From assembly GCA_022385755.1 (NCBI GenBank), contig MU278351.1, positions 623,594-687,593 of the forward strand: a DNA stretch of 64,000 bases, given 5' to 3'. Each line of letters begins with the position of its first letter. The first letter of the stretch is position 1. The stretch is from Trametopsis cervina (Eukaryota; Basidiomycota; Agaricomycetes; Polyporales; Irpicaceae). The position numbers were made by a program, and so were the translations under genes. This document shows positions 5,721 to 35,210 of the stretch, one piece after another. A model generated the notes under the pieces. It had not been told where the DNA came from, did not search any database, and was given only the letters and a program-made list of their open reading frames with translations.

Positions 5721-6789
5721 ATGCACTTTGCTCAGCTCTCTGCCTTCGTCCTCTGCTCGTTTGCGGTTCTGGCTGCCGCCAGGCCAGCTGCCGTCGCTGA
5801 CGCTGTTACTGCTATCGATGTGCCCACTGCACCCACCGTCAGTGCTGCTGAGACAGGTATGTCAACAATAGCGGTTCATCTACATCTCTTACCCAAGCGT
5901 TACCCACAGGTCCCGTCGACGATATCCGTAAGCATAACCACCACCACAAGCATCCCCGTGCTGAGGACAGCGTCGTCGACGATGCTGGTAATGATATGTC
6001 ATTCACTGCGCCGCACGAATGCTAACACAGACATAGAGGATGTGCGCAAGCACCACCACCACAAACACCCGCGTGCTGATGCCGCCGACGATGCCGAAGA
6101 CGTTCGCCACCGTCACCACCACAAGCATCCTCGAGCCGACGACTCTGAGGACGCTGAAGACATCCGCCACCACCGTCCCCACCACAAGCATCCTCGGGCT
6201 GATGATGCCGAGGATTCGGAGGACGTCCGCCACCGTCATCACCACAAGCACCCTCGTGCTGATGACGGCGAGGATGCTGAGGATATTCGTCACCACCGCC
6301 CCCACCACAAGGTACCTCGTGACGATGTCGAAGAAAATACCGAGGCTGTCGGTGGGTATCTGATGAACGCGGGATCATATCGCCTTTACTGACATAGTAG
6401 TAGATGATATTCGTAAGCATCACCACCACAAACACCCTCGCGCCGATGTCGAGGACGCTGAGGAAAATACCGCGGTCACTGGTAAAGGTCTTTTTAGGGA
6501 ATAGCCTAGCTGTTGCTGAACATGTTCCTTAGAAGATGCCCGTAAGCACCGCCACCACCACAAGCATCCCCGTGCTGTAGTGGACGATGAAGAGGACATC
6601 CGCAAGCATCACCACCACAAGCACCCTCGTGCTGATGAAGAGGAAGCGGGCGAAGACATCCATAAGCCTCACCGTAAGCCTCACCACAAGCATCCTCGTG
6701 CGGAGGACAGCGAGGACGCAGAAGATGTGCGTAAGCACCGTCACCACCACCACAAGGGTCCCCGTGAGGACGTTGCCGACTTGGACTAA
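5721..6789 (+). CDS. Secreted His/Asp-rich repeat precursor with KHPRA units
   Basis: A predicted secreted protein of 291 residues; no named family recognised. Five exons (5721-5856, 5910-5987, 6031-6351, 6398-6481, 6533-6789) join in frame, and every intron is phase 1. Exon 1 holds a signal peptide (MHFAQLSAFVLCSFAVLAAARP) and a short spacer. The remainder is about eleven units of 20-30 residues built as EDxRxH, a His-run, KHPRA, then an acidic linker. Inside exon 3, units alternate between HRHHHKHPRADD and HHRPHHKHPRADD, giving a 40-residue higher-order repeat. Each Pro-Arg is a possible Kex2 site, since Kex2 also cleaves after PR in killer preprotoxin. The His runs could bind Cu, Ni or Zn. 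Inference: a Kex2-processed repeat precursor, or else an intact His-rich metal- or wall-binding protein. Two acceptor choices 6 nt apart (exon 3) and 3 nt apart (exon 4) remain open. Confidence 0.8.
6031..6789 (+). repeat. Tandem repeat array coding KHPRAD units
   Basis: In-frame tandem units of about 60-66 bp, densest at 6040-6340, with a 120-bp higher-order period. The coding unit is a His run, KHPRA and an acidic linker. Units are imperfect at both DNA and protein level, so the array is not a recent expansion. Confidence 0.75.
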
Positions 6790-7101
6790 AATAGTCCCAG
6801 CGTATATTCTCTCTTCCTGGTGAAACGGTGAGGAGAAGCACAGGTTTTCGGTCTGCTGCCTTGCATATGAGTCTACGATGATGCGTTCGTGGTAAAAAGC
6901 ACAAAATTTGTAAAAGCTGGCCCCAAAGATGTACTTGTAGCAGCGTATGAAATGAAATGTGTCGTGTATAGGATCATCGCCCATTTGAATATTGAGCGCC
7001 GAGAGAACCACAGTTGCTTAAATAGGATTTACACGAAAGTTTTGATGCGCGCTCAGAATAACTTGCAGGTCTGTTTGTAGCACAACTGCACTTCTCCTCT
7101 C

Positions 7102-10100
7102 ATGGCTGGATCCTCAACAGATTCACATTCACTTGTGAACTTCGATGAATACAACGGAAAACTGCAGGCCTCTGCCTTGAAAGCGACGCGAAATGCCGTC
7201 TCTCTACCAAATGACCTTGGCTTCTACCGTACAATGGATAGAGGGATTGCAGAAGAGGTCGACACTTGTTCTTCCCGAGTACTAGCACTTGCCAACCGAC
7301 TTCTTGATCTTGTAGCCACAGGGGACAGTAGTCGTGTGAACAAAGCGAAGGGAAAAATGGCGTTGGAACATGATGACATCGTGGACACCTTTAGGTCATC
7401 GGTGGTAGATGCTATGGACCAACTAATGGAGAGAGCTGTGAGTAGCACTTTCTGCTATGCGCATAGATATTAATAATAGTTGCAATGTGCAGGATACATG
7501 TCTTGATGAATTCCGGGGTTTGACGAAGCCCCCGGCCATTGCAGTCAATCCTGAGCCGAAAAAGCAGAAGGTACGTTTAAATCTGTGTTTATGTGATATC
7601 TCTTGCTTATATGCATGTCAGGCCGCTAAGAAACCTACTGCATCCTCCGGACGTCTTGATCCTGTGATACAACACGCATCCCATTTACCTAAGCCGCAAC
7701 TCAAGTTCAGACGTAAAGTCAACAACGACGATGCTCTTCCATGGCGGCCCACCCTCCGACACAAATACAATGCCCAGGTGCCTCTCGGGTATGACCTAAA
7801 ATCCTCGAATGAAGGGGATGTGGATAGCTCGTATGTCTATTGTACGCTCGCTCAGCTAACACGCAGTGAACATGTATGTAGGCCACATCCGTATCGTCAT
7901 GAAATCAAGAATATTTCGTACCCCTCACATATGTTTGTCTACGCGGAACCGATACCTCCGAAGTCGTTTGAAGAGACACCGTTCAAATGGGTGGAGACAC
8001 TAGAGGAGCTTGCTGCTATGCTGGACGAGCTGCGGCAAGCGAAAGAAATAGCGATTGACTTGGAGTATCACAGTTACAGGTCCTTCACTGGATTTGTCTG
8101 TCTCATGCAGATAAGCACTCGGAAGCGCGATTGGGTAGTTGACACTCTCGTTCTACGAGACGAATTGGAAGACCTGAACGAAGTCTTCACGGATCCTGCC
8201 ATTGTGAAGGTATGGACATAGAGCTTATGTTGACCGTATTTGTGATACTAAGATCTTCTGTGCTTTAGGTCTTTCACGGAGCTGATAGCGACATCGTTTG
8301 GCTGCAACAAGACTTCAATCTATATATCGTCAACCTGTTCGATACCTATCACGCTTCGAAAATTCTAGGTCAGCTGCTTCTCGCGCGGTGTATAGTTTTG
8401 TAGTAAACTCCTGCCATTCTAGACTTTCCACGTCATGCGCTAGCGACATTGATGGAGATGTACTGTGACTTCACACCCGACAAGCGATACCAGCTTGCCG
8501 ACTGGAGGATTCGGTGTGTATTTCGTCTCTTAGAAGCGCTAACCCCAGTCTTATACTGTCTAGACCTCTTCCCGAAGCAATGCTAAATTATGCTCGTTCC
8601 GACACGCATTTCCTCCTTTTCATATACGACAACCTCCGAAATGCACTTATCGACTGTGCACAGTCCCGCGCTGCATCACGCGCGCAGAGCCCTGCAGAAC
8701 CGCAAGCGGGCACGTCAACGGGCGTCGATCCTTCGCATGCGCTCGTCCGTGAAGTTTTGTCCCGCTCGCAGGACACAGCGTTACGAGTATACGAACAAGA
8801 GACGTACGACGCTGAGACCGGGTCCGGACCCAGCGGATGGGACACCCTCGCGAGAAAATGGAACAAGGCTGCTTTGATGGCTGGAGAGCGAGACAGCGCG
8901 CGAAGACGGATATATCGCGCAGTGCATGCCTGGAGAGAGCACGTAGCTCGAGAAGAAGATGAGAGCACGCGGTAGGTGACACGTTTTTCTCATCGCCCGT
9001 ATTCTTACCAGGATTTCAGCTACGTTGTTCCGAACCACCAACTTTTTGTGTTGGCAGAGCAAGCCCCGCGGGATATGGCTAGTCTGCTGAGCCTTTTCCA
9101 GCATGCACCTGCTATTATCCGACGACGCGCGAAAGAACTCCTGGATACTATTCACGAAGCATCGAAGGAGGACGTAGTGCCTCCGGAAGCTACGACGTCA
9201 CAGCCAAGCGTGGTTGAAACCGTCGAGGTAGTCATGACCGCTGTGGAAGAGGTGAAGGAAAATACTGTTCAGTTCTCACAGGGAACGCACGACGTTCGGT
9301 TATGGCCGACTGGTGAGCTCTGCCTGGCCATCTGCGAGTCCGCTGATTGACGTTGTATCACTTACCAAACTCTAGGTGGAAGAAAGATCAACGTTTCTTC
9401 ATCGCTGTTTGGCGCCAACTTGGGAAACATCAACACAGCAAAAAGCGGAAAACGCACGCTATTTATATCCGAACGCAGTTCCTTATTCTCTGATAGCACG
9501 CCATCACAGCCGGTAAGCTTCCTCTGTCACTGGAAGCGCTACGGAATACTCTTATCGATTCTCGGTCGCAGGTTGTTAACGTGCAGGCGCAAAGAGTCCG
9601 GGATGTCGTTGCTCGGATACACGGCGGGCTCAGTATAGCGCCTGCTATGCCGTCACTGCCCGCTGCGTCTGCGTCTATAGCAGCTGAGGAATCAGGAAAT
9701 ATGGAGGTCGTCCCCGAGACAATTACGGAGCAGGTCGAAATCCCGTTCGTGCCCGCCAACGAACGCCAGGATAAAAGGGCCGCAGTCGTCGAGACCGTCG
9801 CAGACACGATCGTCGTGGTCGGACAGCCACAGCGCAAAAAGCGCAAGCGCGAGAAGAAAGCTGCGGATGTTTCAAACGTGCAGCGTGAGTCCGAGCAGCC
9901 GGCCGCAGACGCGGAGTTCGACTACTCTACGGTGTCGAATATTCTGGATGAAGGGTCTGATCACGAGCCCGCAGGGCCTGTGGGAGGTCCTCGAAAACGC
10001 AAGCAGAAGGGCCAAGGTATGTTGATTCAGAAGGTCGTGCACATGAGGTTATGTGCTGACTTCCGCACGTTCATTAGGACATGTCGACCACGGAGGATTC

Positions 10101-10163
10101 CGTGCACCACCGAAGGCTCCTAGCGAAGTCAGGAGAGGCAACCAGTCCCGCACGTTCAGGTAG
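7102..10163 (+). CDS. RRP6: Nuclear exosome 3'-5' exoribonuclease Rrp6/EXOSC10
   Basis: Rrp6 is the distributive DEDDy-type 3'-5' exonuclease of the nuclear exosome, trimming rRNA, snoRNA and aberrant transcripts. The N-terminal exon (from ATG 7102) is the PMC2NT domain that binds the Rrp47 cofactor. After a basic linker comes the exonuclease domain: [12 protein letters not shown] (8051 onward, Asp and Glu ligands), [16 protein letters not shown] (8270 onward), [13 protein letters not shown] and LNYARSDTH (8589 onward, catalytic Tyr and Asp). The HRDC domain is split by an intron near 8975 and continues as [14 protein letters not shown]. The C-terminal tail is charged, with KKRKREKK and KRKQK nuclear-localisation-like clusters. 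The last intron joins KGQ to [13 protein letters not shown] and ends at TAG 10161-10163. About eight introns. Length and domain order are usual for the family. Confidence 0.92.
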
Positions 10164-10668
10164 CTCAGCCTTGTGCAGTGACTGAGGGGACTTGTAGCAA
10201 ATCTTTGGGTATCCGCATCTTTCCTATCTTTACTGTCTCATCTCGCAGAATGAAAGCGTCTCTTGTCAGGATGATCACATCACTCACTAGTACTGAGACG
10301 CCTGGAGGCTATTTATATCGCAGCTAAATATACTACGAGCGCTGGTAATAGGCCCTGAGCAGTATTTTGTGGCGGTAGGAGACTCCAGTGTTGACCAGAC
10401 TGTTGTGCATATCCAGCGACGTTAGGTAGACACTGGGTATATTGCTCGACGATGCTTTGCTATAGTAAGATGTGAAGCAAATGGAGACAACACGATCAAC
10501 TTCTGGTGGGATGATCGTAGACTGCGGTACCGTAATGCCGACATCGGCTTCGTCATGGATTTTATTTCTGGCACACGACCGGTTCGTTGTTGTTGGGAGG
10601 TAGGAACAACAAAACTGGCAAGATATCATGCCTCCTCCTTCACTGCCCTCAGATGCCACCCCTCTGAC
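10164..10668. other. Intergenic region between RRP6 and the Stealth gene
   Basis: About 500 bp between two plus-strand genes. It must contain the RRP6 terminator and the next promoter. An in-frame ATG at 10555 could extend the downstream protein by 38 residues. Nothing else is recognised. Confidence 0.4.
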
Positions 10669-13225
10669 ATGGCCATACACCGTTACCTCCCACTGCCCAT
10701 TGCACAACTAACGGCGCAGGCGCCCGCACCTCAGTGGTGGCGAAGACGAGCGAAACATGCCACCTATATCCTCACTGCTACCGTCACCATCTTTTTGCTG
10801 CTCAGACACACCGGCAATCTCTTAGAAAACGACAACACAGACACCGACCCAGATGCCCAACATGAGTTCACATACGACGCTTCGCTAGATGCTGCCTACC
10901 TGCCCTTCAAACCGTCCAGAAGACCAGCACCCTCGGAAGGACTCAAGCATGCCACAGAACTACCCTTGGCGTGTTTAGATTCACATCTCTCACGTGGTGA
11001 ACTTTGTTATAATTCCTCTTCACCGCAACTAGATATTGTATGGACATGGGTGAATGGCTCCGACATACTACTGAGGGATGCATGGATACGCATAGAGAAC
11101 TCCTTTGGTGAGGACGACCCGTATCGGCCTACCAAGTCTGTTAGAAGGGCTCGACAGTTCCGGTCAGTAATGTCAGTCTATTGTGAATAACAGTAGCTGA
11201 TGGGTGTAAAACCTTACAGTGACCATGACGAGTTGCGCTTTTCTATGCGCTCAGTGCTTAAATCTTTCAAGGCGTACAGCGGGAAATTCCATCTTATAAC
11301 ATCCGATTTCGCTGTGCCTATAACCGATCCAAATGCCACGATCACACCTGGCTTTCGGCTGGGCCAGGTGCCGCAGTGGCTCAATACCGGATTGCAGGCC
11401 TGGAGAGACGACAAAATCAGCCTCAGGACTATTCATCATGCAGATCTATTTGACCCCTATCAGGACACTGTGTTTAACAGGTACGTTATATCCACGGGAG
11501 GAAACTTAGCCCTTTACACAAGACACGTGTAGTTACGGCATAGAGTCTCAATTCGGACATCTGGAGGGTGTGTCGGAGAACTTGTGAGCTATTCGCCCAG
11601 ATGATGTCGTGCGTAGCAGCTGACATCAATGTTATCAGCATTTACATGGTGCGTTCTGAGTGGGATCATCCCGCTTATATACTTACGTGGCTGAGGTAGA
11701 ACGACGACTTCTTTTTCCTGAGGGATGTGACGCCGCGTAGTTTTTATACCTCAGGTGAGCCACGCAGAACGAGTTATCGCATGATAGATGCTCAACGACG
11801 TTGCATTCAGCGTACGGGATCGTATTGCGCATGCAGAGCGATTTACTGGTACAACCAACGCAGTACGCCAAGGGGCAACTTAGAGGCGAGTGGCGAAGCC
11901 TCGCCGCTAGTAACGTTCTTCTCGGTAATAGCATCCTCTCCACCATCTCTGATAACTTTACTCACGCATTTTCTTCTTAGGAGACCGCTTTGGCAGCCGC
12001 CATCGACCCTACGTAACTCATGAAGCAAAGGCTTCCTCCCTCTCCCTTCTCCACGAGATCTCCCAGATTTGGCCCAGCGAACTTGCCACTGCGGCAACAC
12101 ACCCGTTCAGAGAAACAAAGTCCGGCGAGAGCGATCTCAGCATGATATTCCTCATGGTACACTTTATTGTGGAGCGATGGCGCGAGGCACTTCTGTGGTC
12201 ATGGGTAGTAGGAAAACATGGGCAACTAGATGATACGTGGGGAGAGTTGGAAACCACGAGGGCCTGGAAGGACTTGGGTGGGGATGAGAATGACATGACA
12301 GCCAGGTTGCTGGTACATGCGGGTCAAAGAGACACATTGGAATCTACGAGGGTCGCTGAGAATCTGAAGAAGAGCGGCCTACATAAGGAGGACCAGACGA
12401 GGTATGTGTTCGGTAAGTGTTTCCTCTGTGTACAATCCGTGACGCGCCTTCCTAATCATCGTATTCGAACACAGCCTCGCAGGACGGATACCCCTACACC
12501 GGCTTTCTACCAGGGCCAAATAAGTGGCCTAACTATTCCAGGAACAGTACCAGGCTGCAGTGCTCGATCGAAACAACATGTTTCGCAGACCATCATGGAC
12601 AGCCGTTCACGCGCGCTAGCGATGTATTCATGAACGTCGCGTTTCGCCGAGTTACCTGCGGGGATTGCAGTACGTGTACCTTGCACTGAATACACCAACA
12701 AAGCTGACTTTTTGTGTAGTCATTGCTGCACTGATTGAAGCGAGCGGAGAGCTCGGCCTGAGGGCATTCCTTCCACCGGCCTCCCGGGTCTTGCCGTCTT
12801 TAGCTGGCAAGATCGCCTCATCAGACACGGCAGAGATACCTCACCTACCCCTCGTCAGTAGATGGGAGGACGGCAAGTTCTCCCTGCGGGATGTCATGGG
12901 TACCTCGCGGGATATGAGCGTCCGACAGTGGTCCTTGCGACTGTTGCAACGATATCGATTCGTCATCGGTACGTTTCCGTCCTTCCTTTACAAGGGATCC
13001 ATTGGTGCTCATATACAATTCTGTTTAGGAGAGACTCCCTCACATTTCGGAATGCTGCGAAGTCCGGCTGAAGCGACGGCTATGATCCGTAAACTAGAGC
13101 GCGAGCCGGAAAAGGTGTTGCTTTGCGTTAACGACGATGTGGATAGGGACGACGAGAAGGTCGCCAAAGTCCTTCAGAAGTGGTTCACGAGTATGTGGCC
13201 AGAGCCCGCTGCGTGGGAGAAGTAA
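10669..13225 (+). CDS. Stealth-family sugar-phosphate transferase (Xpt1/GNPTAB-like)
   Basis: A type II membrane protein with Stealth conserved regions, related to vertebrate GlcNAc-1-phosphotransferase and to Cryptococcus Xpt1, which transfers xylose-phosphate to protein glycans in the Golgi. From ATG 10669, a short basic cytoplasmic tail is followed by a membrane segment (ATYILTATVTIFLLLR). CR1 is DIVWTWVNGSD (11035 onward). CR2 is RDHDELRFSMRSVLKSF, formed across an intron at about 11172-11219. CR3 is ENFIYMNDDFFFLRDVTP, which needs a 10-nt microexon at 11639-11648. CR4-like sequence (DGYPYTGFLPGPNKWPNYS, DVFMNVAF) lies at 12475-12650. The C-terminus ends PEPAAWEK at 13225. All exon joins keep frame. 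The start could instead be 10555. The sugar donor cannot be read from sequence. Confidence 0.85.
11639..11648 (+). other. 10-nt microexon in the Stealth CR3 motif
   Basis: The exon before ends GAG AAC TT (donor gtgagc). The exon after starts AAC GAC GAC TTC. Only the ten bases CATTTACATG, bounded by atcag and gtgcgt, restore the conserved FIYMNDDFF of Stealth CR3. The surrounding introns are 11584-11638 and 11649-11699. Confidence 0.8.
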
Positions 13226-13522
13226 GATTGCTGTTGTTATCTCATCACTCTCGTTTTCGTCCTCGATTGTCTCTCTTTGAAATATTTGTTAGGATGGTCG
13301 TTCTTTTTCGGAGACACTTGTTTGCTTCACATAACCTATTCTTGCTGTCGATCTTATAATGTTGTACAGGGTACCTAGACACCGGATGCTACGCCTACAT
13401 ACCACTGCTATGTTTGTGGGAGAAATGAAGAATTATTATTCACAATGTACACAGAACAGAATGTATGGTAACAACAAGACAAAACAACTACGCAGCCCAT
13501 AGGTAATAAGTTGGCAGGTACT
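13226..13522. terminator. Convergent 3' flanks of the Stealth gene and DUG2
   Basis: About 300 bp between two stop codons on opposite strands. It must hold both polyadenylation regions. No gene is seen. Confidence 0.4.
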
Positions 13523-16500
13523 TTACAAGAGCTCGCCTCTCTTCGACAGATTCACCAAGAAGCGCTCGACTACGGACTTACCACGCCGAAGGTTGGTCAA
13601 GGAGATGCGCTCATTAGGCAGATGCGCTTGGTCCTGGGGAAGAAGGCCAATCAATAAACGTTATAAGACCAAGGGGAAGAGCTCACAGTGCTCTGACCAA
13701 GGGGAAGGTGCAAGGCATGACAAGCGAATTCCTTCTCGAGATAAGGCACTGAAGGTATGGACTACGAAGCACGGCCTATGAGCCAATCTTCGACTTAGTG
13801 ACTAAAGTAGCAACGTACCCCTCCTTCTCTTATACGTAAGGGCTCCATGCCCCATTCGTCTCGGACAGCGTCTTGTAGCGCGTTGAAACAGAAGTCGTCA
13901 AGGTTCCCTAGCCACCAATCCGCAGTTCGCATAATGGTAACCTGAGTTGTTATGAGCAGTGAGCACCACGCAATCCAAGTTTGTACGGACCTCAAGTGCA
14001 TTCGGAGATTGCATTTTCGCGAACTCAGACTTCAGATGATCTTGTAGAGCGTTACCGATGGTTTCGAGATCTTGGTCAGGTACTATCCGTATCGAAACAC
14101 GGGCAGTGACCGACGATGGAATAACCGTCGCGTCTTACGACAGAGTCCATCAAAATTGGACATGTAATACAGCCACCGGAATTGCTTACTGGTCGCACCG
14201 GAGGCCTTGATGTCATGGATCGTGAGAGAAGGTTCTCGCCACTTTGCCGATAGTGCAGAGGCGGGGGTTTGAATCACGCCGGAAAGGACCTTGTATAGCT
14301 GACGCTCCTCATCCGTCAAAGGACGGACGCTGTCATCTAATGGGAGATTAATAAGGCATCTCCTTAACTACACTTGAGTCGTTCTTACAGAACGCAGGGA
14401 GAGTGACTTGTTTATGATCATCAATGAGAGTGCCTAGGAGTTTGACTCTACAGAACGGGTAAGTAAAAAGAGTAGCAAAGTAAGTGTGCCAGCTCACATG
14501 TCGATCATAGGCTCTACAATTGCTCCCCCGTCTACCCCAGAGTGAAGGTCTGGACCCTCACCAGAAACCTAACGGCAATGGTGAGTGGAACCAACAAACA
14601 GGGCAACATATGCAATCGTACCTGAACTTTGCAATGGATCACACCTCGAAGCCCGTACGTAATGCAAGGTGTGTCCTCAGCGATCCACGTAGAGTTGCTG
14701 TTCAGAGTTGCAGATAAGAACATAGAGATAACGCGTGCACCACGAGCACCTACCTAACCAAAATAGCGTCAATAGGTCCTATCGCATTCTGTAAGAGAAC
14801 TCAATCAATGAACTTTCATACCAAGGAGGTCATGAGAATGATATACCTTGTGTAGTCTCACGGTCTCCTCGAAGCCTCCACTGCCGGACTCCTCTTCTCC
14901 TTCTATCAGGAAGACTAGGTCTAGATCTAACGCACGTTTGCTGAGCAACTCTGCCGCGGCACAAGCGACAGCCATAATGGGGCCCTTGTTATCTGTCACT
15001 CCGCGACCGTAAAGGTACCCATTCCGTGCGTTGAGGGTGTAGGGATCTGAAGCCCAAGTGCTACTAGGAGCGGAGACCACATCGTAATGCCTGTAGTTCC
15101 ATACGTTAATGCCGTCCACGTTATACGGAAAAACAGTATAGCCACCCATAAAACAGAACCCTTTGTTTCTTACGCTCTGTTTGCCTCCCAACGAACGTTG
15201 CGAGTACAATAGGGCTTGTGTTTTCTCCTGTGGGTAACTAAACCGCACAAAAATTAGCGCGATAGTCTATAATGCCTGGCATTTACACACCAGCGATGCC
15301 TGCGCGCCCAATTGGATGAGACATTTGCGCAACCAAATAGCTGCTTGGCGACAGTCCTCCTTGTGCTTTGCAGCGCCACTGACACTCGGGATAGAAACAA
15401 ATCGGGAAAGAGCATAGACCATAGTGTCTAATGTAGAATTGTTCTCAGTCGAGTCTGACTTGTATAGAAGACGGCAGCGAGCGTTACCTCTAGTCAAGTC
15501 CAGTTCGCCATCTGCGTCTAATTTCTGAATCTTGGACGTTAAGTGCGGCGCGGGTTCAGGGGGACATACTTCCCATATCTGCGAAGCATGGTTAATCCCT
15601 ACACAGCACAGAGCAGTTGAAGGCGAGCCTTAATCTGATCATCGTTTGCGCCTGTGACAAGCGCGAATCTCTCGTTAACGTTTGAATTGTCACCTTTCAA
15701 GCGGGTGACTATGGATGATAGGATGATACCGGAATGCCCTGGCCAAGATGCTGTCATGTCGAACGCAGCAGACCAACGCTAGCAATTGTGAGGCATCAGT
15801 TCAGTTAAAGCGTAAAACATACTACGATTGTCACCTGAACCTCCCCGTTGGCGGAACATGTATACAAATCGGAGTGGAGCATGGACATAGAGAGTATGTC
15901 AACGTTCTAAAGCCACTTTAGTTATACACATAGCACACAGGAGACAGATTATGCATCATACCTCTGAGACTATAATCCTGCGAACGAGAGTCTTGGTATG
16001 GAGATCCCACACCTTTACATAGCCATCTTGACATCCCGCATATATAGAGTCACCTCTAGCCACAATGGCAAGAACAGCGCCCTGTTCACATTCGAAAGTG
16101 TGTTGCAGAACGGGTGCGCCCGTAGACAGCGACCATATCTGCCCACGATCCCGTTAGCTATTGGTACAAGGACGTATCCCTCGACAGAACTAACCTTGAC
16201 GGTCGCATCCCCACTTCCTGTGATAAGGTATGCAGTGGAACTCGAAGGCAATGGCACGTCATCGGACCCTTCACGATTGCTGCTTGGTACGATAGCCATG
16301 CAGTACACATAGCCATAGTGTGCTGACCAAATCATATTTTCTGCTGGTACCGATAATACCTGAACGGGATGTTGCCCATTAGACGGAAGAACACAAGAGT
16401 CCGAGCCTGTTGAAGTGCATCCTGGCGTTGAGAAACCCGTTTGAGGGGTAGGCGGTGTGGTGCGACCGGGATTCCGCGCATGCAAATCGGCGGGTTTGCG

Positions 16501-23800: not shown

Positions 23801-26800
23801 ACGAAAAATGCTAATGAAGTTGAATACCGTGCGATATTCGATAATCTTATTGCCGACCTCCTCACAGTGCTGTTTTGGCCTGAGTGGCCCGCTGCAACAG
23901 TCATATTGGGTGTAGCAGTGAGATTCATGGTGAATGAATCGCGGTGGAGAATGATCCATGTGCTCATCCAGTATTACACAGGTATCCTCCCTAGACGATA
24001 TCAAGACTTCTAGCCAGACTGAGAATAATGCTGCAAAGACGATGGCACTTGACCATCTTGGTATTATTGCTTCTCGGTTACGGCCCGCATCGACGCGGCT
24101 TGCTAAATCTAATCTGGCACCCATGGATGAGGTAATATCCCTGTCTCTGGGTATGATGTTGTAGTGACCCCCTTTCAGATCTTCTCACGCCGTGATATAA
24201 AAGCGCTGAAAGCACTCATGGACACGTATCGTGACATATCTTTGTATCTGTGCAAACGATCGCCCGAAGATCAAGCATATGAGGTCGGCGAGCTCATTCC
24301 CTCCGCTTTACGTTTCTAATTGTCGGGGCGGCTAGAGTGCGCGAGAGTTAACAATAGTCATGCTCGGCCAAGAGCTGGCAACATCGCTCAAACAATGTGC
24401 GTGCCTTCTAGAGGATCCAAACGAAGGCGATGTTGGCACTGCTGTACAAGTGGAGCTCGTACCGTATGGCAATAAGTTGAAGGAGGCGCTTCAGTCCATA
24501 TGGGACGACCATAACGTGGACGTCTTCGATTCTGGGTATGGAATACTTAGTGCTTTTTGTCCTCTACTCATCCACAGTAGGTCTTCGCCCGATGAAATAC
24601 AACGGATAGACCACCTCGCGGAGGAGGTCGGGATGACGCAAAGTCTTAGGAGCTATTTCACTCCGATGTTGAACACGATTATACAAAGTCTGGATGCACA
24701 ACCTGTCTTCATGCGTACTAAGGCTCTAAAGGCTCTTGGGCAAATCATTACCAGCGATCCCGAAATATTGTCTGCTGTAAGCTGCAGCTTCTCCATTCCA
24801 TCCTTCTGTATGCTTACCAGCGAGTTTAGAAAAACGTTCGCCATTCCATTGATACTCACCTGCTGGATAGCTCCTCCGCTGTACGAGATGCTGCCGTTGA
24901 GTTGATTGGAAAGTATATCATCGAGTCTCCTCGGCTTGCGGACCAATATTACAAGCAAGTTGCAGATCGTATACAGGTACGTCGCGCCAGACCAGACCTG
25001 TCGGCGTTTTTCATGTTTCAATAGGACACTGGATTGGGCGTACGCAAGCGTGTATTGAAGCTGTTCAAGTCTCTATATGGGGCCACAGAAGATCGTGTGC
25101 GACGGATTGATATTTGTAATCGTATCGTCCAGCGTATGGGAGACGAGGATGATACAGTGAAGGATCTGGCACTCAAGACCCTAGAAGAGCTATGGTTTTC
25201 TGATGTTCCCGTCCTTCCTGTTGCGGGAAAAGGTTCCACTCCAGTAGATGGCGATAAGTCGCAGCTACTCATGAAGGTATCCGTCATCATGGGGACTTCC
25301 GCATGCTTTAAAGATCGTCACTCGCCACTGGAGGACGTACTGCACAAACTCATTTCTCAGAAGGAAGGAATGGACGCAACGCACCTTCATCACCGGTATG
25401 GCCAAATCTGTGAGATGCTGATTGATGGCCTCGTCGATGCCTCGGATCTGCCCGGTTTTGTGTGTGCATTTCAGCCTTCGTTTTTGAGGTACTAATATTG
25501 CATTTTAGTCTGTCGTCAATTGCGTTCGGACGATATACCTCTTCACGGCCGCGTATCCAGCAATCCTCACCGCCAATCATGCTTCGACTCTACTTCCGTA
25601 TCTCAAGAACTCCTCAACCGTGCGTATAAACTTCATGTACTTATATTTGCCGACTTACAACGCTCCTACAGCCTGAAGACCAAATCACCTCCGACTACCT
25701 ATTGCGTATATATCGCTGTGCAATTCCTCATTTGCCCAAGACAGCAGTCAAGTTCGGCCAAGATTTACAATTAGCCCTGCAGCCGATGATTATCAAACCG
25801 TCTCCTGCTGCAGGTGTAGCGGTGCGTTCTCCCTCAAAATGTGACGTCAAAATAATGTATCTGACATCTCAAACAGGGACTACAAGAAACGGTTGCATGC
25901 TTATGCGCCGTGGTTCAGCACGTCACTCATGAATACAGGCGACTTGTAGCATTGCTGAAGTCTTGCAGTGGTGTGTTCATACGCTGAGGTGTCGTTACGA
26001 CATTCGTCTTACCGTCAAACGTACAGGCCGTCTGCAACAAACAGCCGCCAGACCACCGACAGCGCAAGTGTCCCAACAAGATATGCGCGCTTTACCGATT
26101 CTTGTATTAATCGTTGCTCTTCTATGTGAACATTGCAACTTTGACGACCTAAGGTCGCATATAGGTGTGTATAGACCCGAGCAAACGGCCAGTTGACGCA
26201 TATCTTATCAATTCTCTAGATTTGCGTCCAGATATCGATTCATTATCGCAGGTCAGCTCAGATCTTGACACGCTCTACAAAATGCTCACACCTGCCCAGG
26301 GCTCAATCACCGAGCATATCTATACTCTATTCCTGAAATTGTATAACAGATTCAGTGAAGTGTCTTTGAGAAGTCGTCTGTTGCAGTGTTTAGGTAGGAA
26401 TGAAGAGGTATGCAAGCCGTCGAGAGCTAATACTTGCATGCAGGTTTCTTGTTCCGTGCTCAGCCATCGCTGCTGACGGCCGAGCCATCGTCACAAATTA
26501 TGGACGACATCTTTGCATCTGATGACGAAGAAGCTCGTGGTCGTTTGTTGAAGATTATGCAAGACTTCCTTCTCGCTGAAGCAGACAAACATGCTGCTAA
26601 GGAAAAGGGTGTCGGTAAGATGGATATCGATGCTCCAATTACACTGTCTGATCTCTATTGAGTAGCTTCGAGAAACAAAAAGCTGCCGGAAACAGTGAAC
26701 ATGGAAGAACTTGTGGGCAACGCGGACGGCTTTGCAGAGTCTGGGTGAGTGCCGCACACGTCTATTTCAATATAACATTGATGCCTTTCTTCAGAGTGAG

Positions 26801-28098
26801 CTCGGCCATCGTGCAACGATACCTACAACCAATCCTTGCAGCCGCTCTATCTCAGAACGCCCAGATGCAGGCCCCCGCGGTGGATATTGTAGCATTCACG
26901 ATTAAACAAGGATTAGCTCATCCACTTCAGGTATGTTCGGGATCTTGATGCGGAAATAATAAGGTATTAATCGTCTTAGTGCTTTCCTGTCATCGTTGCT
27001 CTTGAAACGAGCCCTAACAACAGTCTGAGCGCACATGCGAGTCATCTGCACGGAATTTTGCACAGCAAGCATACGTCTCTGCTGAACACGCGCTACGCCG
27101 CGAGCGCTCGTGCCTCCTTCGACTATCAGAAGAGATGCACCCATACGGTGGTACAAGGTATGTACATTCATACGTAGCTTAATGTTGGACATACTCAGAC
27201 TGTCTTTCCAGGGTATCGCATGGCCCCAGGCCCCACGGCACTGTTACATCGCTGGTACACGCTGGTGCGAGAAAAGCGCCCCCTAAGGCAGGACTTCATC
27301 AAGGCACTGGTCAAGGTCTTTGATATTGATGTTGGAAAGACCTCTCAAGTATGAACATTGGCTATGGTGGAGAAGGTGTTAGGCTGACATCTGATTACAG
27401 GACGATGTTGACTTCACACGTTACATGGCTGAAAACTTCGCATCGTTTGATTATAGAACGCAGGAGGAAGTTCTAACGGTTTTGAAGTACCTCACGTCGG
27501 TCCTGTCCACTACCGGCATGCAATTGGTAGAAGTGGTGTCGCCATTGCATCTGCTAAAGCAGCTGCATGAGGACACACAAACGCCAGGGGCCGGTCCCGA
27601 AGTCGTCTTCGAGATCCTGTCCGAGGAAGGTCAGTGCATTCGACGCATGGTCATCTCCCTGGTGTTCACATGTCGTATCCAGAGTTACAGCGTCAGCTAC
27701 CCATGACGCGAAGTTCCGTCATCATCTGTATCATCATGTCGCTCAAGTCGTACTTGAAATCGCTTTATGGTATATCCGAGGAGTATGTGTCACTCCATGA
27801 TAGTAGGATCATAGTTGACTCCTTCTGTCTATAGAAAATCTTCGAAATGGGTCCTGGGAAAGAAGAGTGCAGTCGGAGATCGGCCAGCCGTAAGGCGTCA
27901 CGAACGTCCTCTAACCTGGGAGCAGTTACCGGCTGCAACTATGCCCATCCTCAGTACGCAGGATGTGGTTGCTCAGCGCCAGAAGGTAAGCTCATTCTAT
28001 CATTGGACGTTCTATCCACTGACATCCTGCAGTTTTTGCAAATCTGGGGTGAAGATGGTGTTTCTGCTGAACCGGAGGACGATTTCCTCGAGGGCTGA
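20862..28098 (+). CDS. SCC2: Cohesin loader Scc2/NIPBL
   Basis: Scc2 (NIPBL, S. pombe Mis4; Rad9 adherin in Coprinopsis) loads cohesin onto DNA. The gene spans over 7 kb with many small introns. Exon 1 (ATG 20862) is spliced at 21020 into a Pro/Ser/Gln-rich N-terminal region with basic clusters ([15 protein letters not shown]). The helical HEAT-repeat body begins near 22100 ([31 protein letters not shown]). Family-typical blocks include [111 protein letters not shown] (through 25100) and DIDSLSQ within the Nipped-B C-terminal domain. The last exon [21 protein letters not shown] ends at 28098. No break was seen, but I did not resolve every splice site. Confidence 0.88.
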
Positions 28099-28296
28099 CC
28101 GACTGGCAAGCGAACTCGTTCCTCATTTACTGGACTTTGACATTGCGCTTTCCTCTATCATTATTACCTGCTCTGTTGTTGCTCTCGGGGACTCTTGTTG
28201 CTTTGCATTTTTATACCTTAGATCAGGACGCAGTTGATGAGCTGCTCTAAAAATCTACTGTAATTGCTTGGGCTTGCCCATGTAATACAATAATGT

Positions 28297-29505
28297 TCAT
28301 TCTGGTCCACTGCCAGCCTGTCCCTCCTGAGGTAATGGAGGTTTCTGGATTTGGCCGTCGACAAACATAACAGGCCCTCGCGGGTATTCCCCAATAAGAG
28401 CCTTGGCAGCTTCATCGAGAGCAGGATCATCCTCGAATTTCCAATCCAGCTCGCCTCCGTATGGCTTTGGGAGATTCTGAGGGTCGATGAGGGTACGTAG
28501 AACGGGGCCCGAGTCCTTTCCCAGTACGTAAATCTTGTTTCGAGTACCTTCATCAAACCAAGGCTACAAAATGACCTTTAGTGCGAACCATACCAGCAGC
28601 GAACATAGAATTTGATGTTTATATATGTACCTTTATCCACCCCCAAACGGTTGGAAAGAAGGACGGTGAATTCACGATGGCAATGGTACCCAGGGTCTCT
28701 GGATAGTTTGCAGTGCCCATGGTGGATGCCTCCTGAAGGTGCTTCCGCCAATTCCATAACGTCCCTAAAGAGACATTCTCCAAGTCAATGATGGTAGTTA
28801 CAGATGAGATTGGAGTTGGCGATGTGGAATGTGGAAGGTGGGTGCACAGAGGCAAGTTGAATCTGATCATAAGCTCTTGAAGAACGAGGCTGTGTTCAAT
28901 GTCAGTGTAAGATCAGTGCATGTATCTAGTAACTGACATTCGCTGATACCGTCTCTCTGATGGGACGGCATTCAAATCCTTCTGCATCTTTGAGTCCAGG
29001 GAGCCGATTCGGTACACGTATAGAGGGAGACCATTCTACTCATATGAATGATATACATATGAGATTGCGAAGGTACATGGCCAGGCCCACCTTGTCCCTC
29101 GTTCCAGTCCAACGAGGATAGTATTTTTTCGCAAGCTCAAATTCATCTGGGGGGAAAGTGGCATAGAGATCGTCCACCTTATTCTTCACACGCCATGCCT
29201 CCGCATCCGCGAACTGCTTCTGAGCCTTGCCGGGATCGAACCGTCTTGCGCGAAGAAAGCGCCTTGGAGGGTAATAAAACTTACAATGTTGACATCTAGA
29301 ATATCTTTGATATATACCACAATGCTTACAATAGGGTGGGGTCGTCATGAGACGGCTTCGAGGTATCCGTACCCGACGTGTAGAGCTTAGCTTTCACAAG
29401 ATTCTCACGGAGCTGTGCGAATGCATCTTGCTGTTCTTGAGTGAGATGTCCAAGGTGGCCAGCGAGTACGTCCACTTTGACGTCGGAAGTCGGTTCTATG
29501 GACAT
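28297..29505 (-). CDS. Sec14-like CRAL-TRIO lipid-transfer protein
   Basis: A CRAL-TRIO domain protein of the Sec14 superfamily, which exchange phosphatidylinositol and other lipids between membranes. The start MSIEPTSDVKVDVLAGHLGHLTQEQ at 29505 leads the CRAL-TRIO N-terminal helices (QQDAFAQLRENL; after an intron RFLRARRFDPGKAQKQFADAEAWR). The lipid-binding domain follows: VTTIIDLENVSLGTLW, YPETLGTIAIVNSPSFFPTVWGWIKPWFDEGTRNKI. It ends with an acidic tail and PPLPQEGQAGSGPE, with the stop at 28297-28299. The substrate lipid cannot be inferred. Convergent with SCC2 (199 bp apart). Confidence 0.87.
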
Positions 29506-30129
29506 CCTACAGAGATCCAAGTTGTCTTACTACGGTGGTGGCGTATCAAGGACTCGATACATGTTTTCGCTCTAGGACCAACTCACCGACCGACCACTTT
29601 GGCACTTGACACACCAGCGTTGTTTCAAGGACGGCAAGATTCCTCAACAAGTTCTCTTCTCTTCAGATTCAGGCAATAAGGGCAGATGAAAGGCGAGAGC
29701 CTGGGGGAATCGAGATTCATACACAGTACAAGCATACGCGGCTTCACCGGCCCGAATCCACCCCGTCCTCTTCCGCCACAAAGCCATATGTTTCCTCAAG
29801 CTGAACATCCCGGAGGATGAAATTTCGCTGACATTCTATTGGTAGCACGTTCTATCGTCTTTCCCGTGTTACTCACTAGCAGAGACATCCTCTCTCTTAT
29901 CGTCTATCGACGTCTTCTGGGTTCACTATTGATACATGTCATCAGGGATGTCATCATCTTACAGGATGACAAAAAATCACTTTCACATCAACTGTTCGGT
30001 ACAAAACAACATGCTACTATTTTCCTATTTTCGGTGCCACAATAATGAGTCCGTGGACGACGTTAGCTAGAACAGACACATAAACGATAAGCTACTGGAC
30101 ATCAGGCAGCTCGAATGGACTTCGCCTAT
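29506..30129. other. Region between SEC14-like gene and Gly/Asp/Arg repeat precursor
   Basis: About 620 bp holding the promoter of the Sec14-like gene and the 3' flank of the repeat precursor, both on the minus strand. No supported gene. Confidence 0.4.
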
Positions 30130-30774
30130 TTACTGGCTGAGCTCACGAGGGCCACGACCACCCTCGCGGTCGCGATCGTTGTCGTCTCCTCCATGTCGGC
30201 CGCCATCGTCTCCTCCGTGGCGACGTGCCTCGAGATCGCGGCGACCACGTCCACGATCTCCGCCGCGGTCATCATCCCCGCCGTTTCTTCCATTGTCGTC
30301 TCCACCATGACGGCGTGCTTCTAGAGCGCGACGACCGCGCCCTCTTCCACGGTCGCCGTCGTCGTCGTTGCCTCTACCATTACCATCGTCGTCTCCACCG
30401 TGGCGGCGAGCCTCCAAAGCGCGAGGGCCACGTCCTCTTCCGCGATCGCCGTTATCGTCATTTCCTCTACCGTTCCCATCATCATCTCCTCCATGGCGGC
30501 GGGCAGTCAGCTCGCGGGGGCCGCGTCCACGACGGTCATCATCCCCCCCGCGATGGCCATCGTCATCTCCGCCATGACGGCGTGCTTCAAGGGTAATGTC
30601 ACTCCTCACTGCATTGGGGAAGGCGACTGAATACAATACAACTCTGAGCACGTCGTAGCATATGCACAGGACTAACAGGTGCTCACCAGCGGCGCTGTTT
30701 CCGTCAAGAGGACGAGCAGCGGCTGAAAGTGCAAAGGCACATACGACGAACGTAAGCAATTTAGCTGAGTACAT
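30130..30774 (-). CDS. Secreted Gly/Asp/Arg repeat precursor with LEARRHGG units
   Basis: A predicted secreted repeat protein of 188 residues, two exons (30774-30687 and 30608-30130) joined by a phase-1 intron. Exon 1 is a signal peptide, MYSAKLLTFVVCAFALSAAARP, plus eight residues. Exon 2 encodes five units of about 27-31 residues, each starting L(E/T)ARRHGGDD and followed by acidic Gly/Asn/Asp sequence and RGRG(P/R)R. Thus each unit has two Kex2-type sites: an invariant ARR before HGG, and a second site that alternates between RR and PR (GPRE, GPRA, GRRA, GRRD). Both are cleaved by Kex2. Predicted products are HGG-leading acidic peptides of about 18-25 residues and a six-residue spacer such as ALEARR. 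No Cys in the body. The function is unknown; a KEP-type peptide precursor is the inference. Confidence 0.8.
   Translation of the reverse strand: MYSAKLLTFVVCAFALSAAARPLDGNSAAGEHLLVLCICYDVLRVVLYSVAFPNAVRSDITLEARRHGGDDDGHRGGDDDRRGRGPRELTARRHGGDDDGNGRGNDDNGDRGRGRGPRALEARRHGGDDDGNGRGNDDDGDRGRGRGRRALEARRHGGDDNGRNGGDDDRGGDRGRGRRDLEARRHGGDDGGRHGGDDNDRDREGGRGPRELSQ
30135..30595 (-). repeat. Tandem repeat array coding LEARRHGG units
   Basis: Five in-frame units of roughly 81-93 bp. The most conserved part encodes LEARRHGGDD; the middle varies in length. The low-complexity composition leaves long open frames on the opposite strand, which are artefacts. Confidence 0.75.
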
Positions 30775-30850
30775 CTTGGTTTGGTCGGGTTGATAGTGGC
30801 TTCTGTACTAGGACACCGGTCGATCTCTCTCAATCGACGGAGTAATGCTT

Positions 30851-30858
30851 CTTATATA
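30851..30858 (-). promoter_or_regulatory. TATA box of the LEARRHGG precursor
   Basis: On the minus strand the sequence reads TATATAAG, starting 84 nt before the ATG at 30774. It matches the placement of TATA elements in the other two secreted repeat precursors. Confidence 0.55.
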
Positions 30859-31859
30859 GTCGTGAAACTGTTTCTTGAACCTTGATTGACCTGAAGTTCA
30901 GAGTACCATTTGTGTAAAGACACTACGAACGTTCGAAGAATTGGAAATTACCAAGGCACTGGTCACACGAGCCAGGGAAACAAAGCAAGCCCGGTGGATG
31001 GTAGTGCTCAATGCGCAGCGCGGTGGCGATGGCGCAGTGCATTTCACTAGACTTCATACCTTGGCATGAGGACTCACTTCCTAAATCCGGCGTTCGAATG
31101 ACACTACCCAGGGTGCGGTTTCCAATGCCGGTATACACTTCTGGGGTTTTATTGACAGCCGGTTCAATGAGTGCTGCGCCAGGTCCAAGGATCTCTCACC
31201 GTCAACATGCTTGGAAACGCTGCAGAACAGCCACAATGTGCTGTGTTGAAGATGACAGCTCGCGAGAATGCCACCGAAATTGAATGAGACGACTGGAATA
31301 GATATCCGTGAGCCAGCGTGATTTGGGTACAATCAGCCCAATATGTATAATTGTTCTAGACTTTCAGACAGCTGGCTACAAACTACAGCGCAGGCATCCT
31401 CCCATACAAATAACGACTTACTTCTTCATTGCCACGCCGTCGCAGCCTGTGCCAAGGATCGTCTCTTGAGTGCGCCGAGACAAGCCTTCCCAAGGCATGC
31501 GTATACCAGCTTTCCATTATTTCGCTTCTACAGTGTCTCATCGTTACCGTGGTATTGGTTCTGCTGCAAGTGCAGTGTCTTCGCATTGGCCCATCATGTT
31601 GACTGGCTGGATTAGCGCCAGTTCGTCTGGCGTTTGCCATCAGGCCCGGCGGTTGAACTTGAACTTTGCAGCTACTTTACATCCATCTTGACATGAAGGC
31701 TCGATATTAACGGAGCCCGTTCACAATATAGCACCATCCGTCCCTGAAGGTCCTGTGTACCGCCAAGGAAGAGTCGTGTCTGCATTCTCCTCGTTAAGGT
31801 GAAACCCAGCCTACTGCGGTCTTTACAAAGCATTCCGTAGCTCATCAAACGCGTTCTAG
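30859..31859. other. Intergenic region upstream of the FIST-domain gene
   Basis: About 1 kb between divergent genes. Frames such as 31011-31283 and 31383-31640 lack any recognisable domain and overlap frames on the other strand. I see no gene in it, though a short 5' exon of the FIST gene could lie here. Confidence 0.4.
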
Positions 31860-33333
31860 ATGGCGATGTATATAACAGCGAAAAGCATATTTGCCCGTTC
31901 GGCATCTGAAATCATTCGTTGCTTAGACCAAATTCCCGCAATAGCAGCAGGATCGCATACTGTGCTATTCTCAATATCCCCCGCGTCGTCTTGGCCTGAA
32001 TCTTCGTTGACGGAGCTCGTAAGTCATCTGAATTCTTTGCCACGCTCTCTGGGATGTTTGTCCGCACCTGTGCAACTCCGTGGGCATGCCAAGACGCGAC
32101 CAGCTGCGGAAGGAAGCATCCTTGACTCCACGGTGTGCTCAGTCGCCGTATTTGATCGTCAATTTGCCACGCCATTCCGTAGTACAATTCCTGGAAGAGA
32201 AGCAACTCAGGTCGGAAGATGGCACTCCTTTAGAAAAGCGGGCGATATCAAGCTACAGGACCATCAGCTTCCGGAGACGGGTGTTGACTGGGAGAGTGTC
32301 TGGGCGCAGAAGGATGTTCAACCGAAGGTGCCAGAAGAGCTGGAAACTCTCAGGCATGTGTATTTGCTCTTCTCATTCAGACAATATTAATCTATATATC
32401 TTAGTCCAGAGGATGTTCAGACGGTGATATACCTGTCTGATACAGCTCCCGAAGGCTTGAATAATGCCCTTCAATATTTTACGCATGCAAACAAGGTCTG
32501 CACCTTGTTCCTTTGTGCGGACATGGGGTCAAATAGTCATTCCAGGTGGGGATATTATCGCACTCAACCCCTTTCTTAACTGGACGACCACATACGCTGT
32601 TCTACAATGGAGAGATTCTATCGTCGGGTGCGGTAGGGCTATGCATCCATCGCAATCCCAGCCGTCCAACCTCGTTGAACGTCTATTGGCCAGACTTAGA
32701 CCCCGTAACGCCGACGCTCACTGTCACCGAGTATGTCGTGTCCATCCCATCGTATTTGCACATCGCTCACGCAGTTCTTGTTACAGATCAGAGAGCAATC
32801 TCATACATTCCATCAATGGTGTAAACCCTTCCCGGCTGTTGCTGAACGCAATTGAAAAGCTTGAATCCAGTGCCAAGGATGACACCTACTACGTTGGTGT
32901 GAAAGCTGCGCAGTTGGAGCCTAAAGGCTCACCGTCGGACCAAATATACGGCATAATGTCCGGTGACCCTTCACGAGGAACAATAGCCCTCGAAGGAGAG
33001 TCCGCACCCATGTCTGGGGCCGAAGTTCAAGTGAGTTACTCAGCCCCAGCCTCCACGTCTCCCCCGCTGACACATTTTCAGATTTTTCGCAGCCGTTCCG
33101 ACCTTCGATCTACCATAACGTCACGTCGTGGTATAAATTTTTGCAAGGCATACTCTGATGGGATAGATGTTCTCTTGGATCCCCCACATGACCCGGATGG
33201 TGCCATTGTCCTTGATGATACATTTTTGGCTGTGTCTGAAAATGGGCTGATCATGAACCCCCGAACCACGGCGCAAACCTCCGTGACGAACTGGAAGTCC
33301 ACATTACCCGGTAGCTCCTTTGTAGTCCGTTGA
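31860..33333 (+). CDS. FIST-domain protein (FIST_N/FIST_C-like)
   Basis: Likely a FIST-domain protein, a fold found in bacterial sensors and in the C-terminal half of eukaryotic FBXO22. The start MAMYITAKSIFARSASEIIRCL at 31860 is followed by TVLFSISPASSW, LGCLSAPV and a long segment with VAVFDRQFATPFRSTIPGREATQVGRWHSFRK. After introns near 32355 and 32495, the frame shows TGRPHTLFYNGEILSSGAVGLCIHR, resembling the FIST_N core. The C-terminal part (YYVGVKAAQLEP, VLDDTFLAVSENGLIMN) ends at TGA 33331-33333. No F-box is visible upstream, unlike FBXO22. The assignment rests on remembered family pattern, so it is moderate. Several introns. Confidence 0.6.
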
Positions 33334-34049
33334 CTACTCTAGTAAATAATCTCCCTCTTCGAGGCAAGTCATCTCTGTTTCACAGTATGCTACGTTTCCT
33401 TACGATCTGTAGGTTGTTCATCAGTAGAAAATGCTTGAACGACGAGCCTTATTTCGTACGTTATTCCTGGAGTAACTGGAGACCTACGTCGCTGATTGAA
33501 CGTGTTTGTGACAACGAGCAGTGACTGAGCGAGTAGAAAGTTGAAGAGTCACGAGACTCGTTGAAGCGCTTGTCCCTTAATAGGAAAAGCAGCGCCGTTG
33601 TGGCGTTCGATGGCCGACCGTTTGTCTGTATTTCATCGCCCGTCGGTTCACTCTTTTCTTCACGACTATTGTGAAACTCCTGCTTTAAGTTTTGAAAATA
33701 AGCATCCTGCCTTGGACACGGTGATAATATGATGGTGAGAAATATATCCCGCAGCAGTCTCTGAGTTGATAATATTTCGTTCTCCGGCAGCCAAGAATAT
33801 CAGGGATAGATCTTAGTCTTCCTAAAGTCTTCCTGGCTCGATTCCGCTTCGCGTGCAGAAGTGCGCATGTCAATCACATTTGAAAGGTATCAACTGCTCA
33901 ACTGGACACTCCAACAGTGATCAGACTTTCCCTCGCTCGTGTGATCATGGTTTTTTACACCATACGGATAGAATTAGGTCGTGTGCAAACCGCAGAGAGA
34001 AATCCTGTCGTGCTCTTGTGGAATTTCTTAGAACCTGGTGCTTGCTGCA
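33334..34049. other. Upstream region of the GRGDS repeat precursor
   Basis: About 700 bp between two plus-strand genes with no supported gene. Short frames at 33685-33873 (minus) and 33853-34131 (plus) have no recognisable features. Confidence 0.4.
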
Positions 34050-34056
34050 TATAAAA
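34050..34056 (+). promoter_or_regulatory. TATA box of the GRGDS repeat precursor
   Basis: TATAAAA 78 nt upstream of the ATG at 34128, essentially the same distance as for the His-rich precursor (77 nt). Confidence 0.6.
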
Positions 34057-34127
34057 GGCCGTCTGGATCTCGTTGCAATACCCAAGCATCAGCTCTTCAA
34101 CACCGATAACTCGACGCAAAGAAAGCT

Positions 34128-35210
34128 ATGAATCACGCTAAGCTCTACGCCTTTATTCTCTGCTCCTTAGCACTCTTATCCGTCGCTCGCCCTACACCCT
34201 CGATCGTTGGGCTCGACTCCTTCGCCTCCGGCTTGAACGCAAGAGCTCTTTCGGGTTCTGCCACCGGTCCTGATTCTGGTCAGTCCGCCTCCAAACTATG
34301 CTCATAGACTTTTCTCATTATGTATGACGTAGATCTAATTGTTCATGACCTCGCCGCTGTCGACCTTCCCGCCGGCGATGACGGCGACTCCCGTGGGCGC
34401 GATGATAGAAGGAGCCTGCTTGAAGCTAGGAGGCACGGCGGCGACTCCCGCGGCCGTGGCGATAGTCGAAACCGTAGGACTCTTGAAGCTCGCCGACATG
34501 GTGATAGCGGATCTCGGGGGCGCGGCGACAGTCGCGGCCGCCGTGACTTAGAGGCTCGCCGCCATGGAAGTGGTTCTCGCGGTCGCGGTGATAGTCGTGG
34601 CCGCCGTGAACTTGAGAAACGTCGCCACGGGGATAGCGGTTCCCGTGGGCGCGGAGACAGTCGCAGCCGACGCGACTTAGAGGCACGACGTCACGGCAGT
34701 GGCTCTCGAGGCCGCGGTGACAGTCGGGTTCGCCGTGGCGGACTTGAGAAACGTCGGCACGGAGACAGTGGTTCCCGCGGACGTGGGGATAGTCGCAGTC
34801 GCCGTGAGCTGGAAGCTCGTCGTCACGGAAGCGGATCTCGTGGACGCGGGGATAGTCGCGATCGCCGTGACCTCGCGAAACGTAGGCACGGCAGTGGCTC
34901 TCGCGGACGGGGCGATAGTCGATCTCGTCGCTCCCTCGAAGCTCGCCGCCACGGTAGCGGCTCTCGCGGACGCGGGGACAGTCGCGGCAGACGCGAGCTG
35001 GAAGCCAGAAGACACGGCAGCGGCTCTCGCGGACGTGGTGACAGTCGTAACCGCCGGGAGCTTCAAGCTCGCCGTCATGGAAGCAGCTCCCGTGGTAGAG
35101 GAGATAGTCGTGGTCGCCGTGACTTGCAGGCTCGCCGTCATGGTGACTCGCACTCTCGAAGCCGCGCTGCTGAGCTCGCAATCAATAGTTCACTCGCTGA
35201 AGCACTCTAG
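34128..35210 (+). CDS. Secreted Ser/Gly/Arg repeat precursor with LEARRHGSGSRGRGDS units
   Basis: A predicted secreted repeat protein of 342 residues, two exons (34128-34278, 34333-35210) joined by a phase-1 intron. Exon 1 encodes the signal peptide MNHAKLYAFILCSLALLSVARP and a spacer. Exon 2 has an acidic lead and then twelve units of about 21 residues. A typical unit is L(E/Q/A)(A/K)RR, HG(S/D)SGSRGRGDSR, xRR, then D or E. There are twelve RRHG junctions; three are KRR and nine ARR. The second dibasic site, usually xRR before D/E/T/S, is also nearly invariant. Kex2 cleavage at both would release 15-residue HG-leading peptides and a six-residue spacer. Eleven copies contain GRGDS. The signal sequence, intron phase and unit start LEARRHG are shared with the precursor at 30130-30774. 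Function unknown. Confidence 0.82.
34418..35165 (+). repeat. Tandem repeat array of 63-66-bp units
   Basis: Twelve in-frame units of 63 or 66 bp encode LEARRHG...RGRGDSR. The unit length is a multiple of three throughout. Because stops are absent from the repeat in other frames too, long open frames appear on both strands (for example 34426-35181 minus); these are not genes. Confidence 0.8.

What the first reader, a model, noticed from the sequence alone, without database searches (positions are those of the whole stretch)
5721..35210. Three secreted repeat precursors share a secretion module but not a repeat
The genes at 5721-6789, 30130-30774 and 34128-35210 have matching signal peptides (Met, Ala at position 4, Leu at 6, Phe at 9, Cys at 12, ending in ARP), a first exon that holds the signal, a phase-1 intron after it, and a TATA box at nearly fixed distance. 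Their bodies are entirely different repeats (His/Asp, Gly/Asp/Arg, Ser/Gly/Arg) separated by Kex2-type sites. This looks like one gene family whose cargo repeat has been replaced or has diverged beyond recognition. I infer Kex2-processed repeat peptide precursors (KEP class). I know of no described family with this signal and these repeats.
Basis: partly seen in the sequence, partly recalled or inferred. Interest (0 to 1): 0.88.

Follow-up and report, generated by a model that had tools for sequence, protein, structure and literature searches.

The report
Secreted fungal multi-peptide precursor gene trio
Three neighbouring genes of a mushroom-type fungus look like secreted strings of small peptides; two carry versions of a peptide also found in related fungi, and the third has the same export signal but a completely different, histidine-rich peptide.

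Summary
The three genes exist as described: same coordinates, matching signal peptides (10-12 of 21 residues identical; at most 8 of 21 for 113 other signal-like starts), a phase-1 intron after the signal exon, and a TATA box at -77, -84 and -78. A consensus signal query finds only these three loci in the 29.4 Mb assembly. One central claim is wrong. The bodies are not all different: genes 2 and 3 share an L-E-A-R-R-H-G repeat, and that repeat occurs in other Agaricomycetes (Lentinus, two Cubamyces, Steccherinum; weaker in Sphaerobolus). Those relatives carry a diverged signal, so the repeat is better conserved than the 'module'. Only gene 1 has an unrelated cargo: eleven acidic/His-rich units without a relative found. 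In all three, repeat units differ mostly at silent sites, which points to selection on the peptide. [quoted passage not shown] genes 2-3 belong to an older 'RRHG' KEP type and gene 1 is a paralogue with new cargo, probably cut at K-x-P-R. No expression or peptide data were available. Known kind, new members.

The parts
5721..6789 (+). Gene 1: signal exon plus four repeat exons (5721-5856, 5910-5987, 6037-6351, 6401-6481, 6533-6789), all introns phase 1; 288 aa, eleven acidic/His-rich units each holding K-x-P-R
   Evidence: splicing and translation; units
5721..5856 (+). Gene 1 signal exon, MHFAQLSAFVLCSFAVLAAARP...
5644..5649 (+). TATAAA, -77 from the gene 1 ATG
30130..30774 (-). Gene 2: exons 30774-30687 and 30608-30130, intron 78 nt phase 1; 188 aa, five RRHG units
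30853..30858 (-). TATATA, -84 from the gene 2 ATG
34128..35210 (+). Gene 3: exons 34128-34278 and 34333-35210, intron 54 nt phase 1; 342 aa, twelve RRHG units, eleven of them with GRGDS
34050..34055 (+). TATAAA, -78 from the gene 3 ATG

Best explanation
Three paralogous secreted peptide precursors of the KEP class, made by local duplication. Signal peptidase cuts at about A-x-A|RP (S-x-A in g3; inferred). In g2 and g3 a kexin cuts at L-x-[A/K]-R-R and at R-x-R-R or R-G-P-R, freeing cores that begin His-Gly or Arg-His-Gly (for g3 HGSGSRGRGDSR-x and variants, for g2 HGGDD...) and short acidic spacers; Kex1 would trim the basic end. g1 is a diverged paralogue whose cargo is now a +4/+5 block with mostly five His, alternating with a -5 to -7 acidic spacer, probably cut after K-x-P-R. 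Shown: gene anatomy, shared signal, shared g2/g3 repeat, silent-site excess between units, a kexin-type P-domain in the genome. Inferred: processing, secretion, and a role in interactions outside the cell (metal binding or membrane activity by the His-rich g1 peptide is only a guess).
For: Signal family. Shared repeat of g2/g3. Relatives: sequences. Selection on the peptide: all units in register, pS 0.755/0.757/0.671 against pN 0.192/0.203/0.202 for g3/g2/g1 (12, 5 and 11 units). Sites: 12 of 12 g3 and 5 of 5 g2 RRHG units read L-x-[A/K]-R-R before HG. The Leu lies at P4 for a cut after the first Arg (L-x-x-R), a reported preference of yeast Kex2, and at P5 for a cut after RR (PMC6258133, section 19 read; position is my reading). 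PR replaces RR at equivalent places: core ends of g2 are 3 RGPR and 2 RGRR, and the first HG of three relatives (P0001-P0003) follows RDPR, RGPR, RDPR. In g1, K, P and R are invariant in 11 of 11 units while the residue between K and P varies (9 H, 1 V, 1 G), with silent codon changes. At least one kexin P-domain locus, C5:761991-762302.
Against: No transcript, peptide or protease data. g1 has none of the strongest sites (KR, RR), and its RK is present in 7 of 11 units, once out of place. No relative of g1 found. SignalP was not available; signals were judged by hydrophobicity and the small-residue rule. PMC9769878 states that C. cinerea and other agaricomycetes have three kex2 genes; here one P-domain locus was found, a lower bound.
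Confidence: 0.72

Rival explanations
1. The proteins are secreted but not cut into peptides: intact, disordered, highly charged repeat proteins of wall or matrix; g1 a His-rich metal-buffering protein.
For: g1 has 55 His in 288 aa and no KR/RR after the signal; no processing data.
Against: Invariant K-x-P-R in 11 of 11 g1 units and L-x-[A/K]-R-R in 17 of 17 g2/g3 RRHG units, with PR/RR exchange at equivalent places.
Confidence: 0.2
2. The signal exon was moved between unrelated genes through the phase-1 intron (exon shuffling), so g1 is not a paralogue beyond exon 1. (A variant of the best explanation, not exclusive of processing.)
For: g1 body unrelated to g2/g3; phase-1 introns at both ends of its inner exons 2-4; intron after the signal in the same phase in all three.
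Against: Rapid decay or re-expansion of a repeat body after ordinary duplication gives the same picture; all three genes lie within 30 kb. I did not compare the intron sequences.
Confidence: 0.3
3. The three signals are alike by convergence on a hydrophobic leader.
For: Signal peptides are low in complexity.
Against: Position-anchored identity 10-12 of 21 including C12 and R21-P22, against at most 8 of 21 in 113 other signal-like starts; only these three loci in the genome (a query built from them, so partly circular).
Confidence: 0.03
4. Dikaritin-type RiPP precursors whose cores are cyclised by UstYa (DUF3328) enzymes.
For: Same precursor layout.
Against: The 5 UstYa matches lie on C1, C11 and C18, none on C4; 0-1 Tyr and 0 Trp per protein.
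Confidence: 0.04

Closest known systems
Kex2-processed repeat proteins (KEPs; Le Marquer 2019 PMC6339444, Umemura 2020 PMC7329392, Vogt 2022 PMC9769878)
   Same: Signal peptide, tandem units of about 15-30 aa separated by dibasic sites, no Pfam domain over its cut-off (g2, g3).
   Different: g1 uses K-x-P-R and partial RK instead of KR/RR; no paper main text with four strings of the RRHG repeat was found.
Hypothetical proteins of Lentinus brumalis (P0001), Cubamyces menziesii (P0002), C. lactineus (P0003), Steccherinum ochraceum (P0004)
   Same: Repeat with RR|HG after an aliphatic or, once, Phe residue; P0001-P0003 also GRGDS.
   Different: Signal of MQFK-NF type, clearly alike among themselves (z 14.8-53.6) but only weakly like g1-g3 (best g2-P0001, z 6.0, 1 of 2000 shuffles reaching it).
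MSDIN toxin genes of Amanita (start of abstract in the listing only)
   Same: A conserved leader with varying core is a known evolutionary pattern (recalled).
   Different: Recalled: MSDIN precursors are short, single-core and not routed through Kex2; no relationship claimed.

Membership tests
KEP (g1, g2, g3) | Signal peptide | tested here: inconclusive
   Hydrophobic leaders pass the filter and end in a small-x-A rule site; SignalP not available
KEP (g2, g3) | At least 3 repeats of at least 8 aa between KR, KK, RK or RR (Umemura's rule) | tested here: met
   In-silico fragments of at least 8 aa: g3 twelve HG-led (the last one a divergent C-terminus), g2 five HG-led
KEP (g1) | Same rule | tested here: inconclusive
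   7 RK sites give several similar fragments, but RK is missing from units 3-6, which stay in one fragment of over 100 aa, and the rule bars repeated sequences longer than 100 aa; KR, RR, KK absent
KEP | Cleavage by Kex2 to secreted peptides | not testable with these tools
   Needs peptidomics
Dikaritin RiPP | UstYa (DUF3328) gene near the precursor | tested here: not met
   5 matches, none on contig C4

The most novel reading that the evidence does not exclude
A KEP locus in which one paralogue kept the secretion exon and swapped its whole peptide cargo for a His-rich, charge-balanced unit cut at a [K/R]-x-P-R kexin site; such sites are not among those used by the published dibasic screens, so a hidden set of KEPs may exist.
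Probability: 0.3. Interest if true: 0.6.

Novelty: new member of a known kind. Interest (0 to 1): 0.42.

Why it matters
The functions of KEPs are largely unknown (abstract of PMC9769878). Here a repeat is shared across genera while its units inside one gene differ mostly at silent sites, which suggests that each peptide copy matters. The [K/R]-x-P-R site, seen in place of RR in relatives, can be tested directly and would widen KEP searches. The set of g1 against g2/g3 is a small, clean case for asking how a precursor gene changes its peptide.

Tried and rejected
Search for g1 relatives with the whole protein: 7995 candidates scored, none at E <= 1 (only the candidates sharing most words were scored, so His-rich words may have crowded the list); with residues 1-60: 270 candidates, none at E <= 10. 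Genome search with the Lentinus signal: no match, and the tool says an empty answer shows nothing. Genome search with P0001 whole: three matches, all in g3. Whole-protein genome searches with g3, g1 and g2 did not recover the other genes' signal exons, so that tool is weak for short diverged exons and more copies may exist. Of the 7 hits, P0006 (a gag-like protein by its look, no RRHG) and P0007 (no RRHG) were set aside as likely composition matches; P0005 (Sphaerobolus, E 3.4e-4) is weak and its gene model looks mangled; P0005-P0007 were left out of the signal comparison. Pfam: no family over its cut-off for g1-g3 or P0001-P0004. PDB with g3: none at E <= 0.001. A fungal RGD paper (PMC10344888, abstract and passages) names no such protein in what I saw. 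Pro-Arg cleavage by Kex2 (K1 killer toxin) is recalled; passages of PMC8999023 and PMC2515848 did not give it. Searches that led nowhere. Papers: PMC9769878 abstract, results parts 1-2 of 3, discussion and one methods section; PMC7329392 abstract, section 6 part 1 of 2, one methods section and passages; PMC6339444 abstract and passages; PMC6258133 passages and section 19.

Full report
Observation. The window is C4:623594-687593 of a 29.4 Mb assembly in 59 contigs. No transcripts were available. The first intron is phase 1 in all three, and all four introns of g1 are phase 1.

Signal. M1, A4, L6, F9, C12, A15, A20, R21 and P22 are invariant. I took every distinct ATG-started 24-residue stretch from the 59 sequences held at that point (many overlap) that passed a hydrophobicity filter without acidic residues near the start: 116 stretches, 3 of them ours, none verified as a signal. 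Our three match one another at 10-12 of 21 positions; the best of the other 113 reaches 5, 7 and 8 of 21 against g1, g2 and g3. A consensus query finds these three loci and no other at E <= 10; it was built from them, and the search is lossy for short exons.

Repeats. g2 and g3 are related: local score 285 against means of 158 and 154 in period-preserving shuffles, 0 of 500 reaching it either way. The LEARRHG pattern has 11 exact places in the genome, 4 in g2 and 7 in g3; at up to one mismatch there are 32 places, 13 of them in g2/g3, against 19 for the reversed control. g1 matches neither body above shuffles. A K-H-P-R-A pattern has 10 places, 8 of them in g1 and 2 elsewhere, with 2 for the control.

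Relatives. Of 7 hits at E <= 0.1 for g3 (7988 best candidates scored), five carry RRHG units: Lentinus brumalis, two Cubamyces, Steccherinum and, weakly, Sphaerobolus. So the host is probably an Agaricomycete near or in Polyporales (inference). The signal ends of P0001-P0004 form a group of their own (z 14.8-53.6) and resemble g2 best (g2-P0001 z 6.0, 1 of 2000 shuffles reaching it), g1 weakly (z 2.3-2.9) and g3 hardly (z -0.5 to 2.9). The simplest account is one family whose signal drifted between lineages while the RRHG repeat stayed; g1-g3 then share the lineage's own signal form, and g1 changed its repeat.

Selection. With all units in register, pS is 0.755, 0.757 and 0.671 and pN 0.192, 0.203 and 0.202 for g3 (12 units), g2 (5) and g1 (11). 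An earlier count on motif-selected units gave mostly lower pN but is biased by that choice. The units look old and kept alike at the peptide level, not freshly copied.

Processing sites. In g2 and g3, 17 of 17 RRHG units read L-x-[A/K]-R-R|HG. L-x-x-R, with the cut after that Arg, is a reported preference of yeast Kex2, so cores may start RHG or, if the cut is after RR, HG. PR stands for RR at the core ends of g2 (3 PR, 2 RR) and before the first HG of P0001-P0003. In g1 the eleven PR are all K-x-P-R (9 KHPR, 1 KVPR, 1 KGPR). I therefore read K-x-P-R as a kexin-type site, which Vogt et al. make plausible by reporting products cut after single Arg in Pichia (PMC9769878). This is inference. After the signal g1 has 0 KR, 0 RR, 0 KK, 7 RK.

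g1 cargo. Split by a rule of my own, the basic blocks carry net +4 (8 of 11) or +5 (3 of 11), with five His in 10 of 11 and four in one; the acidic parts carry -5 to -7 in 10 of 11 and -2 in the first, which the split cuts short. Charge balance of a cationic core by an acidic spacer recalls multi-peptide precursors of antimicrobial peptides (recalled), but no activity is shown, and Vogt et al. saw no antibacterial activity and no growth phenotype for the KEPs they tested.

Class. g2 and g3 meet the published repeat-and-dibasic rule; the signal was not run through SignalP. g1 meets it only in part. No UstYa match lies on C4. One kexin P-domain locus was found.

Novelty. Four sequence strings of the g3/g2 repeat occur in the main text of none of the library's papers, and no paper holds both 'Kex2-processed repeat' and 'Polyporales'. 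Supplementary tables, where KEP lists sit, were not open to me, so the RRHG type may already be listed there.

Noticed in passing
34128-35210: Eleven of twelve g3 units hold GRGDS, the classic integrin-binding string; also 4, 3 and 2 times in P0001-P0003, but 0 in g2 and in P0004 and P0005. It may be a by-product of the R/G/D/S composition.
   Followed up: partly
P0001-P0005: Public gene models of the relatives look faulty: P0001 seems to retain an intron, P0002-P0004 seem to run into another frame of the repeat (my reading). In this window other frames of g3 are open too (34426-35181 -, 34677-35153 -, 34699-35220 +).
   Followed up: partly
6395-6403: Three TAG in a row at the third acceptor of g1; each choice keeps the frame and changes only Val residues.
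   Followed up: no
window: Some neighbours are ordinary genes: 3'-5' exonuclease 7457-8218, Stealth-like 10555-11187 (below cut-off), RPAP3_C 35595-36620, C1 domain 60910-61830; 6 of the 10 stretches scanned had no family at E <= 0.01.
   Followed up: no
genome: Only three matches, at two places, to the multicopper oxidase domain (a lower bound), few for a white-rot fungus (recalled), which would suit a brown-rot or other habit.
   Followed up: no
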